Source of the DNA: Chloroflexota bacterium
Lineage (GTDB): Bacteria; Chloroflexota; Anaerolineae; Aggregatilineales; Phototrophicaceae
NCBI GenBank assembly: GCA_014338005.1
Contig: QUBZ01000013.1
Location: 1-64,000, forward strand
DNA: 64,000 bases
Direction of reading: 5' to 3'
Of this stretch, positions 18,415-49,977 are shown piece after piece. Positions within the stretch are counted from its first letter, which is position 1, and every line of letters begins with the position of its first letter. Under the pieces are notes generated by a model. The model was not told the origin of the DNA. It saw only the letters and a list, made by a program, of their open reading frames with translations, and did not search any database. The translations under genes were made by a program, and so were the position numbers.

Positions 18415-18828
18415 ATGCCGGAAAAAAAGAAAAAACGCGATTTGATCGCTGCTTTTGAGTCTATCGAACGTTTCCACCGGCGGCGGTCGGAACTGGTGAT
18501 TCACGCCGTTCTGTCGCTGACTTTCCAGGCGGCCATGTGGTTGAACTGGTATTCATCTTATGGGGCTGTTGGCCGGGGTTTTGAAGGCACGTTTTTCACC
18601 GACCGGCTCAGCATCACGCTGGCGCTGGTGCTGGCACTGGTCGGGCATCTGGCGCTGGTGTACCTGATGGAGTCCAGAGATTGGCTGGTGGTGCAGGCGC
18701 TCCGGCGGCATCAGCAAGACCTGGCCGATTATGAAGCCGATGATGAGCCGGAGGCCGGCGCAGCGGATGACGAAACCGGCAGCCTGTGGATCGAGGATGA
18801 AAAGATGGATGCGGGTAGAAACCGCTAA
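18415..18828 (+). CDS. 2TM-domain membrane protein
   Basis: This 137-residue protein begins with a very basic segment (PEKKKKRD). A helix-rich region FESIERFHRRRSELVIHAVL leads into two transmembrane segments (about residues 26-46 and 64-84), the arrangement of the 2TM domain family. An acidic tail closes it. It follows the histidine kinase by 20 bases with its own AAAGG site, so the two are likely an operon. Function is unknown. Confidence 0.6.
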   Translation: MPEKKKKRDLIAAFESIERFHRRRSELVIHAVLSLTFQAAMWLNWYSSYGAVGRGFEGTFFTDRLSITLALVLALVGHLALVYLMESRDWLVVQALRRHQQDLADYEADDEPEAGAADDETGSLWIEDEKMDAGRNR

Positions 18829-18913
18829 GCACATGAACCAGCTTAATCTGCATACTGGCAGTGGGCTTAAGCTCACTGTCGGAGGCAGGCATTCTCATCT
18901 GGTTGATGTATTA
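18826..18913. repeat. 88-bp structured repeat, copy 1
   Basis: This copy is about 85 percent identical by eye to the sequence at 49275-49361. It begins in the stop codon of the 2TM gene and ends a dozen bases before the end of murI. The inner part forms a hairpin around TTAA (AGTGGGC TTAA GCtCACT here, perfect in the other copy), enclosed by CTGC and GCAG arms. The outer ends are inverted repeats close to TAGTACAT. It may be a miniature mobile element or a convergent terminator. Confidence 0.6.
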
Positions 18914-18924
18914 GGCGCTTGTTT

Positions 18925-19716
18925 TCAGCCGGTGTGATAATAACCAATGAGCGCTTCTATGCCGGTCAGCCGTTTGAGCATAGCCTGGAAGGCTGCCGGG
19001 CTGCCGCTGGTGAAATACTCGTTCGGCGCGGGTGTTGGCGTTAAACCATTCGGCCAGACACGGGCGACCTGCCGCGCGACCGCCGGGGCGGGGTCTACCA
19101 GTTCCACGCCCGGCCCGGCAATATCCTGAATCGTTTCGCTCAAAAATGGGAAATGGGTGCAGGCCAGCACGATCTGGTCCGCGCCCGCCTCGACCAGCGG
19201 CTCGATGTAACGCCGGATGATGTCCCGATTTTCCGGCGTGTTCGCGCTGCCGGACTCGGCAATCATCACCAGTTCCGGCGCGATCTGCGTCAGCACGCGC
19301 GCGCGCCCGGCGTGGCGCTCCAGCGTGTGCTGGTAAAGCGCGCCGTTCGCCGTCGTGCGGGTGGTCAACACGCCGATGACGCCGGTTCGCGTAGCCGCCG
19401 CTGCCGGTTTAACCGCCGGCTCCATGCCGACGAATGGCACGTTCGGATACTTCTCCCGCAGGTTGTACAGGCTGGCGGCGCTGGCCGCATTACAGGCCAG
19501 CACGATCACCGCCGCGCCGCGTTCCAGCAGAAAGCGCGTGATGGCCGTCACGTATGCGCGCGTCTCCGCTGCCGGGCGCGGGCCGTAGGGCAGGTGGGCC
19601 TGATCGGCGAAATATAGCGTAGGGTGGTTGGGCAAAAGGTGGTGAATCTGCCGCAGCACCGACAGCCCACCGATGCCGGAATCGAGGACGCCGATATATG
19701 AGGTGCTGGCCGTCAT
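18925..19716 (-). CDS. murI: Glutamate racemase
   Basis: The enzyme interconverts L- and D-glutamate for peptidoglycan. The family motifs are all present: GVLDSGIGGLSV (D12, S13), VLACNAASA with catalytic C75, and VLACTHFPF with catalytic C186 and H188. Length is 263 residues, normal for the family. The presence of MurI and UppP in the window shows that the organism makes a peptidoglycan wall. It lies in a minus-strand run with the amidotransferase and rplS genes upstream. Confidence 0.93.
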   Translation of the reverse strand: MTASTSYIGVLDSGIGGLSVLRQIHHLLPNHPTLYFADQAHLPYGPRPAAETRAYVTAITRFLLERGAAVIVLACNAASAASLYNLREKYPNVPFVGMEPAVKPAAAATRTGVIGVLTTRTTANGALYQHTLERHAGRARVLTQIAPELVMIAESGSANTPENRDIIRRYIEPLVEAGADQIVLACTHFPFLSETIQDIAGPGVELVDPAPAVARQVARVWPNGLTPTPAPNEYFTSGSPAAFQAMLKRLTGIEALIGYYHTG

Positions 19717-48467: not shown

Positions 48468-48496
48468 TTGCCTGGGGGCAGTTCGCGTTCTATAAT
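48468..48496 (+). promoter_or_regulatory. Sigma-70-type promoter for the XRE gene
   Basis: TTGCCT at 48468-48473 and a perfect TATAAT at 48491-48496 are separated by 17 bases. The predicted start site lies about 25 bases before the GGAGGAAG of the regulator gene, an ordinary leader length. Confidence 0.65.
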
Positions 48497-48527
48497 GCGA
48501 ATACATCAGGCGCGTGGAGGAAGTGGG

Positions 48528-49277
48528 ATGGACTTTAAAGATGCAGCGGCCCGCCTGCGAGCCAAACGAGAGGGTGAACCGGAGGAAAAACCGGCCAAAG
48601 AAACCGATTTTGCCGAGTCGTACCGCCTTCGCGGCAAGATGATCGGCGTCCTGCTGCGGGATGCGCGTTTACATGCGGCGCGCAGTGTCGAAGCCTGCGC
48701 CGAGCTGTTGAAAGTGACGCCGCAGGAGGTTGAAGCCTGGGAATATGGCGAAAGCGTACCCAGTCTGCCGCAGCTCGAGCTGCTGGCTTATTATCTGGGT
48801 GTGCCGATCAGCCATTTTTGGAGTACGGATACATTAGAAGCCTCGCAGGGGAGGCACATTGATATTCAGACTGAATACCTGGCGCTGCGCGACCGCATGG
48901 TGGGCGCTTTGCTGCGCCAGGCGCGGGAAGAAATCGGCATGACGGTAGAGGCGTTAAGCCAGGCCTGCGCTGTGCCGGTGGAGCGCATTCAACAGTACGA
49001 AATGGGCGAACTGCCCGTGCCGATGCACGAACTTTCGATGATGGCCGGCATACTCAAACAAAACATGAACTATTTTTTGGAGAGCAGCGGTCATATCGGC
49101 AACTGGCTGGCCGTTCGTGAAGAATGGAAACATTTTAGCAGCCTGCCGGAAGATTTACGCCAGTTCGCGGCGAAACCTGTTAATATGGGTTTTATTGAGA
49201 TTGCGTTGATGTTAAGCCAGATGCCGACCGAAAAACTGCGGCGTGTCGGCGAAAGCGTGCTGGACATCACGCGCTAG
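48528..49277 (+). CDS. Tandem XRE-family helix-turn-helix protein
   Basis: From ATG 48528 the protein has 249 residues. Two XRE-type HTH domains are visible: residues about 36-90 (LRDARLHAARSVEACAELLKVTPQEVEAWEYGESVPSLPQLE) and about 125-180 (LRQAREEIGMTVEALSQACAVPVERIQQYEMGELPV). The C-terminal 65 residues resemble no domain I know. It is likely a transcription regulator, divergent from the histidine kinase. The ribosome site is strong. A structured repeat begins at its stop codon. Confidence 0.78.
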   Translation: MDFKDAAARLRAKREGEPEEKPAKETDFAESYRLRGKMIGVLLRDARLHAARSVEACAELLKVTPQEVEAWEYGESVPSLPQLELLAYYLGVPISHFWSTDTLEASQGRHIDIQTEYLALRDRMVGALLRQAREEIGMTVEALSQACAVPVERIQQYEMGELPVPMHELSMMAGILKQNMNYFLESSGHIGNWLAVREEWKHFSSLPEDLRQFAAKPVNMGFIEIALMLSQMPTEKLRRVGESVLDITR

Positions 49278-49361
49278 TACATGAGCCGGCTTAACCTGCA
49301 TACTGGTAGTGGGCTTAAGCCCACTGTCGAAGGCAGGCATTCTCATCTTGTTGATGTACTA
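49275..49361. repeat. 88-bp structured repeat, copy 2
   Basis: The element runs from TAGTACAT to ATGTACTA, the terminal inverted repeat, with a perfect inner stem AGTGGGC-TTAA-GCCCACT and flanking CCTGC/GCAGG arms. Its first three bases are the stop codon of the XRE gene. A second copy lies at 18826-18913, also starting in a stop codon. It could be a miniature inverted-repeat element with a preference for gene ends. Confidence 0.65.
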
Positions 49362-49437
49362 GGCCTGCTGGTTGGCGTCGGACGACGCCGGCACGCAGCC
49401 GCACCGTTGTAGGCATAAGGATATTTAAGGGGGTAGG

Positions 49438-49977
49438 ATGACAACTGCTCAAGAACTTCAGGAGCGGGGTGTAAAGCTGTTCCAGCAGAAGGACTTCGAG
49501 GCCGCCGCACAGCACTTCCAGCAGGCGATGGATGCTTATGAAGCGGAAGGCCGCCGCGATATAGCTGCCGAGATGCAGGTCAATATCGGCCTGGTACACC
49601 GGGCGCTTGGCGAAAACCAGCAGGCGCTTGAGGCGATGCAGGCGGCACTGGGCGTGTTTCAGGAAACCGGCGACGCGGTGCGAACGGCGAAAGTATTGGG
49701 GAACATGGGCGGCGTGTACGTGGAACTGAACGACCACGAGCAGGCCTATAATTGTTATCGTCAGGCAGCGGATATTTTTGAAGCGCAGGGCGAAAAAAAA
49801 CTCTACGGCGAGACGTTGATGGCAATCGGCGCGCTGCAAGTGGACGAACGTAAATTGATGCAAGGCGCGGCCACCTATGAAGTCGGTCTGGAACAGCTCG
49901 GTGAGTTAACGCCGCGCCAGAAGATGATAAAAGGACTGCTGGGTATTCGGAACAAGCTGTCCGGCGGAAACAAGTAA
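49438..49977 (+). CDS. TPR-repeat protein
   Basis: The 179-residue soluble protein has about three tetratricopeptide repeats, e.g. GVKLFQQKDFEAAAQHFQQAMDAYE, VNIGLVHRALGENQQALEAMQAAL and GNMGGVYVELNDHEQAYNCYRQAADIF. TPRs are protein-binding scaffolds. It lies 13 bases before the GT-C gene and might be co-transcribed, possibly helping assembly of the surface glycan machinery. Confidence 0.82.
   Translation: MTTAQELQERGVKLFQQKDFEAAAQHFQQAMDAYEAEGRRDIAAEMQVNIGLVHRALGENQQALEAMQAALGVFQETGDAVRTAKVLGNMGGVYVELNDHEQAYNCYRQAADIFEAQGEKKLYGETLMAIGALQVDERKLMQGAATYEVGLEQLGELTPRQKMIKGLLGIRNKLSGGNK

What the first reader, a model, noticed from the sequence alone, without database searches (positions are those of the whole stretch)
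18826..18913. 88-bp structured repeat found twice, each starting in a stop codon
Seen: copies at 18826-18913 and 49275-49361 share TAGTACAT-type ends, an inner stem around TTAA and a flanking CCTGC/GCAGG pair. Both start inside the stop codon of a plus-strand gene. Inferred: a miniature mobile element with a target at gene ends, or a reused terminator or small RNA module.
Basis: partly seen in the sequence, partly recalled or inferred. Interest (0 to 1): 0.55.

Follow-up and report, generated by a model that had tools for sequence, protein, structure and literature searches.

The report
Tiny jumping element inserted at stop codons
The repeat is one of a family of very short, gene-less jumping DNA elements that appear to borrow the enzyme of a larger transposon, and because they favour the rare letters C-TA-G they often land in the TAG stop codon of a gene and rebuild it without damage.

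Summary
In detail: two copies, 90% identical, both starting in a stop codon. They belong to a dispersed family: 11 model matches in the window's genome (G000), 55 in congener G005, 2 in G006, 2 variants in G008.

It is a MITE, a non-autonomous relative of an IS630-family transposon. Congener G015 has a 1,169-bp IS630 element with the same ends in the same order (27 of 29 bp right, 16 of 22 left). Empty sites at four insertions show insertion at TA; three were already gene stops, two of them CTAG.

The stop-codon coincidence needs no special tropism. Flanking bases favour CTAG, which is about 14-fold depleted in G000; 11 of 41 non-genic CTAGs are stops. The element starts with G, so TA+G rebuilds TAG. 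Exact overlap occurs at 9 of 54 sites, no more than the target predicts.

How it spreads is open. A terminator role is unsupported.

The parts
18826..18913 (+). MITE copy 1 including the TA on both sides; decayed ends
49275..49361 (+). MITE copy 2 including the TA on both sides; perfect 8-bp ends
49275..49276 (.). TA, left target duplication of copy 2; with the element's first G it forms the TAG stop of the upstream gene
   Evidence: empty site in G006
49360..49361 (.). TA, right target duplication of copy 2, followed by G (CTAG)
49277..49282 (+). left terminal inverted repeat GTACAT of copy 2
   Evidence: end matches the IS630 element of G015
49354..49359 (+). right terminal inverted repeat ATGTAC of copy 2
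   Evidence: end matches the IS630 element of G015
18860..18877 (.). core palindrome of copy 1 (AGTGGGCTTAAGCTCACT, one change)
49308..49325 (.). core palindrome of copy 2 (AGTGGGCTTAAGCCCACT)
18415..18828 (+). upstream ORF (137 aa) whose TAA stop is the start of copy 1
48468..49277 (+). upstream ORF (269 aa), present in 17 of 17 congeners, whose TAG stop is the start of copy 2

Best explanation
The repeat is a miniature inverted-repeat transposable element derived from an IS630-family (Tc1/mariner-like) insertion sequence. Transposase made elsewhere recognises the ends (GTACAT...ATGTAC) and the element is pasted into a TA dinucleotide, preferably within CTAG, duplicating the TA. CTAG is strongly depleted in this genome but comparatively frequent as a TAG stop codon, so insertions often hit stop codons. 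Read from either strand, the element begins with G, so TA+G rebuilds a TAG stop and the host protein is unchanged. Selection then leaves copies mainly at the 3' ends of genes and away from divergent promoters. Shown here: dispersal, ends shared with an IS630 element, empty sites, bias to CTAG, stop reconstitution. Inferred: mobilisation in trans by such a transposase, and selection as the cause of the 3'-end bias.
For: Copies. IS630 element with both ends in the same order: control. Empty sites: copy 2 absent in G006 and 13 other congeners; sites A, B, C of G005 empty in G000. Outer C at 24 of 38 left ends and G at 28 of 38 right ends. CTAG 104 observed against 1,468 expected, 11 of 41 non-genic CTAGs at stops. 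Exact stop overlap 9 of 54 sites. None of 54 inside an ORF, 3 of 45 in divergent gaps. Two other IS630 elements of the genus also lie in CTAG at both ends.
Against: No matching transposase was found in G000 or G005 with the G015 protein, though both are fragmented assemblies. TA survives at only 17 of 38 left and 22 of 38 right ends, and CTAG on both sides at 3 of 22. Site C inserted at TTATAA, not CTAG. The left-end match to the IS630 element (16 of 22) is hardly above the best control match (15 of 22). Copy 1 has no interpretable empty site.
Confidence: 0.9

Rival explanations
1. It is a regulatory RNA or transcription terminator module kept at gene ends by function; its dispersal is a by-product.
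For: Stable fold; bias to 3' ends and convergent gaps, 11 of 45.
Against: No terminator-like site, no Rfam match in the window, weak covariation, presence at copy 2 in 2 of 16 congeners, decayed ends, and cores of very different length between orthologous sites.
Confidence: 0.05
2. The element specifically recognises stop codons or gene ends rather than CTAG.
For: 9 of 54 sites exactly on a stop codon; the IS630 element of G015 and the G008 copy L023 also sit exactly on a TAG stop.
Against: The fraction is compatible with plain TA choice (p = 0.16) and with CTAG choice (p = 0.12); site C is at TTATAA between genes.
Confidence: 0.04
3. It is a REP-type palindrome moved by a RAYT (tyrosine) transposase.
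For: Short, palindromic, extragenic; GTAG repeats are reported from Chloroflexi (PMC3733652, passages).
Against: It has terminal inverted repeats, a TA target and an IS630 partner with the same ends, and the core palindrome carries no GTAG or CGTC tag.
Confidence: 0.02

Closest known systems
RUP (repeat unit of pneumococcus), proposed to be moved by IS630-Spn1 (PMC2229807, passages)
   Same: About 100-bp extragenic MITE, short inverted repeats, TA at the ends, ends resembling an IS630-family element.
   Different: Here a CTAG preference and stop-codon reconstitution are seen, the core is a palindrome that varies in length and sequence, and the matching transposon was found in a congener, not in the same genome. 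Sequences were not compared.
BOX elements of pneumococcus (PMC3049150, passages)
   Same: Fixed outer parts with a variable number of tandem units in the middle; length differs between strains.
   Different: Here units are 11-22 bp and mostly differ from site to site instead of one fixed boxB module, and the ends are IS630-like.
Correia/NEMIS repeats of Neisseria (PMC2229807 table)
   Same: MITE-like repeats of about 107-155 bp with TA at the termini.
   Different: 24-bp inverted repeats are listed for them; no sequence comparison was made.
IS630 and ISY100 (PMC2170065, passages)
   Same: Insertion at TA with TA duplication; a CTAG preference of IS630 is stated in a reference title there (Tenzen and Ohtsubo 1991, title only).
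   Different: Those are autonomous; the present element has no gene.

Membership tests
MITE of the IS630 family | short, non-coding, many extragenic copies | tested here: met
   87-88 bp in the window; 11 and 55 model matches in G000 and G005; 0 of 54 sites inside an ORF
MITE of the IS630 family | terminal inverted repeats | tested here: met
   TAGTACAT/ATGTACTA in copy 2, imperfect in copy 1
MITE of the IS630 family | TA target duplicated on insertion | tested here: met
   empty sites of copy 2 and site B; site A with a remnant, site C at TTATAA; TA decayed at many other ends
MITE of the IS630 family | ends shared with an autonomous IS630 element | tested here: met
   G015 element, 27 of 29 and 16 of 22 bases, IS630 model above cut-off for the C-terminal ORF; the left match alone is near the control level
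MITE of the IS630 family | transposase able to move it in the same genome | tested here: inconclusive
   no match in G000 or G005 with the G015 protein; assemblies are fragmented
RUP | sequence similarity to the RUP consensus or IS630-Spn1 ends | not tested
   no RUP sequence was fetched
BOX | boxA-boxB(n)-boxC sequence modules | not tested
   architecture is analogous, but no BOX sequence was compared
REP (GTAG/CGTC-tagged palindromes) | GTAG or CGTC tag at one end of the stem | tested here: not met
   the core GACAGTGGGC-TTAA-GCCCACTGTC has neither tag
REP (GTAG/CGTC-tagged palindromes) | associated RAYT transposase | not tested
   no RAYT search was made

The most novel reading that the evidence does not exclude
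The 24-bp core palindrome GACAGTGGGCTTAAGCCCACTGTC is a mobile module in its own right. It is carried in identical form by several MITE families with unrelated ends in genomes of two bacterial families of one order, its place can be taken by another palindrome inside the same MITE arms, it also stands alone between genes, and it expands in place into tandem arrays, so MITEs would serve as vehicles for a smaller selfish or functional palindrome.
Probability: 0.3. Interest if true: 0.65.

Novelty: new variant of a known kind. Interest (0 to 1): 0.4.

Why it matters
It explains without special machinery why a mobile repeat appears exactly at stop codons: a CTAG-seeking transposon in a CTAG-poor genome, with ends that rebuild TAG on either strand, is nearly harmless at the stop codons it finds. 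The tandem, exchangeable core is less expected. If the palindrome moves on its own it would be a mobile unit of about 24 bp riding inside other mobile units, and the close pair G000/G005 would make its expansion directly testable.

Tried and rejected
RNA family: no Rfam match at gathering thresholds in the window. Terminator: no terminator-like site in 48900-49700. Covariation: weak. tRNA association: no tRNA in the window. Viral spread: neither the right end nor the 24-bp core has an exact match in the viral collection. REP membership: no tag. Stop-codon tropism beyond the target: not needed. Copy 1 empty site: the G006 ortholog of the upstream gene ends in diverged sequence and the downstream gene lies elsewhere, so nothing is concluded from it. 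Integron attC sites were considered from memory only and not tested.

Rows dropped: 63 loci were examined for ends; 4 gave no usable end (L003, L042, L131, L145); 5 loci taken as orthologous duplicates of G000 sites were removed, leaving 54. Because L003 had already been dropped, removing its G005 counterpart L105 loses that site altogether. L102 (G000) and the G008 copies were not in this set. L044 is counted as a stop overlap although a 6-nt remnant separates the stop from the element, and L139 was found only with the second ORF procedure. In one search the gene end of G002 was not read, and that of G003 was read from the printed line, not by the frame the script chose. A chance-match figure (27 of 29) is void because the sample held real copies; one search replaces it.

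Full report
What was checked. The two copies lie at 18826-18913 and 49275-49361, are 90% identical over 86 bases, and begin on the TAA of ORF 18415-18828 and the TAG of ORF 48468-49277. A covariance model from 16 copies finds 11 matches at E <= 0.001 in the window's genome G000, 55 in congener G005 (a few places counted on both strands), 2 in G006, 2 in G008, and none in the other 13 of 17 genomes searched. Only 150 of roughly 700-2,300 first-look candidates per genome were scored, so the counts are lower bounds. Contigs with an exact match to the right end are titled as Anaerolineae or Chloroflexi metagenome-assembled genomes, 13 stretches in all.

What it is. In G015 the right end of the repeat lies directly behind a transposase. 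The element there is 1,169 bp with two ORFs of 154 and 209 aa that match the two halves of the NCBIfam IS630 transposase model (the second above the curated cut-off, the first below it) and Pfam HTH and DDE_3 domains. A run of A between the ORFs suggests the frameshift familiar in this family (recalled, not tested). Its ends agree with the repeat in the same left-right order: 27 of 29 bases on the right and 16 of 22 on the left, against best matches of 20 and 15 in 340,800 bases of reversed control sequence. The left match alone is weak; the pair in order is what counts. Two more distant IS630-like elements, in G003 and G002, also sit in CTAG at both ends (read). The protein query found no such transposase in G000 or G005.

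Empty sites. The gene before copy 2 is present in all 17 genomes. Of 16 gene ends that could be read, G000 and G005 carry the element and 14 do not. G006, the nearest empty one, reads CAC-TAA-ACCTG where G000 reads CGC-TAG-element-TAG-GCCTG, the same length once the element and one TA are set aside. Within one 15.4-kb stretch of G005 three further copies are empty in G000: site A (CTAG, the stop of a minus-strand gene, with a 6-nt remnant beside the G005 copy), site B (GCC-TAG, the stop of a long ORF, with the far end of the copy lost in G005) and site C (TTATAA, intergenic). Copy 1 has no interpretable empty site.

Why stop codons. The base outside the TA is C at 24 of 38 left ends and G at 28 of 38 right ends (p = 2e-5 and 2e-8), which gives CTAG. 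TA itself survives at 17 of 38 and 22 of 38 ends and CTAG on both sides at 3 of 22, so most copies are decayed. In 404,800 bases of G000, CTAG occurs 104 times against 1,468 expected from base composition; outside genes 11 of 41 CTAGs are stop codons, against 207 of 1,809 for all non-genic TA. The element starts with G read from either strand, so TA+G remakes TAG. Exact overlap with a stop was found at 9 of 54 distinct sites (L001, L002, L021, L036, L039, L040, L041, L044, L139). That is compatible with a plain TA target (p = 0.16) and with a pure CTAG target (p = 0.12), so no extra stop tropism is needed. Outside this set, the IS630 element of G015 and the G008 copy L023 also sit exactly on a TAG stop. 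None of the 54 lies inside an ORF. Of 45 sites with two neighbours, 31 are between co-oriented, 11 between convergent and 3 between divergent genes; divergent gaps are avoided (p = 1.5e-7 by base pairs, 0.011 by gap count), which fits selection against promoter damage. ORFs here are mechanical calls, not curated genes, and the gap control is from G000 only while most sites are from G005.

The core. Five G000 insertions have orthologous counterparts in G005, so part of the family predates their split. At some of these the core differs: one unit in G000:C77 against about eight 19-bp units in G005:C237, and extra units of the right half at G005:C209 against G000:C151. Tandem Repeats Finder reports central arrays (unit 11-22 bp, 1.9 copies or more) in 20 of the 48 G005 loci given to it, two of them weak (L035, L133), and in none of 9 G000 loci. 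The unit mostly differs from site to site, but L139 and L144 share one 17-bp unit, so transposition of an already expanded copy is also possible. Slippage at the palindrome is the simplest cause (inference). In G008 the same MITE arms enclose another palindrome, GTAGGGACACGGCATGCCGTGTCCCTAC. Conversely the exact 24-bp core GACAGTGGGCTTAAGCCCACTGTC occurs in 5 of 154 genomes of the order (60 places in G005, 8 in G096, 5 in G047, 1 each in G000 and G008; the reversed control pattern is 0 everywhere). In G096 (same family, other genus) 7 of 8 places lie between inverted ends of two kinds, containing TCAGTGAATCAC or ACTTACGCAGTTGA-like repeats; in G047 (another family) 3 of 5 share the inner arms of an element whose ends contain CCATTTGAAAAGTC (one of the three without detectable ends); in G005 the core also sits in elements with GTTTATCCATAA-like ends, one of them empty in G000 and G006. 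Some copies stand alone. Whether the palindrome moves by itself, passes between MITEs by recombination, or is kept by function is not resolved.

What is known. RUP of pneumococcus is the closest precedent for an IS630-dependent MITE with TA ends, and BOX for a fixed frame with a variable tandem core (PMC2229807 and PMC3049150, passages). ISY100 inserts at TA and duplicates it in vitro (PMC2170065, passages); a CTAG preference of IS630 was reported by Tenzen and Ohtsubo in 1991 (only the title seen, in that paper's reference list). Searches for IS630 with MITE and stop codon, IS630 with CTAG and stop codon, MITE and IS630 with Chloroflexi terms, the core sequence, palindromic repeats with MITE and IS630 with CTAG listed no paper that, from titles and abstract openings, describes this family. 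A 2024 review of prokaryotic MITEs has no occurrence of IS630, stop codon, tandem, CTAG or Chloroflex in its main text (PMC10969869, word search). Subscription journals are largely outside that library.

Verdict. An IS630-type MITE, ordinary in mechanism, whose stop-codon association follows from its target and its first base; a variable and exchangeable core makes it a variant worth a closer look.

Noticed in passing
L192:1741-1825 (G005:C122); L054; L183 (G008:C28): A second MITE, with ends like GAGTTTATCCATAAACC/GGTTTATGGATAGGTTC at YTAG, holds the same core palindrome; it is empty in G000 and G006 at L192 and appears nested in a copy of the first MITE in L054.
   Followed up: partly
L248-L253, L257, L258 (G096); L182, L254, L255 (G047): The exact 24-bp core palindrome lies inside MITE-like elements with unrelated inverted ends in genomes of another genus and another family.
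   Followed up: partly
whole G000 sample (window plus L221-L238): CTAG is about 14-fold rarer than base composition predicts (104 against 1,468 in 404,800 bases).
   Followed up: partly
element ends, G005 loci: Where the flanking CTAG is not intact it is often CTGG, CCAG or CCGG, as if the TA had changed by transitions; a bias in mutation or repair at CTAG would be one explanation.
   Followed up: no
L105 (G005:C209), beside the element shared with L003: G005 carries well over 100 bp of extra sequence, absent from G000, directly right of the shared MITE, possibly another repeat.
   Followed up: no
window 18925-19716, minus strand: The gene converging on copy 1 looks like glutamate racemase from its sequence (recalled, no family search was made); its neighbour differs in the relatives examined.
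   Followed up: no
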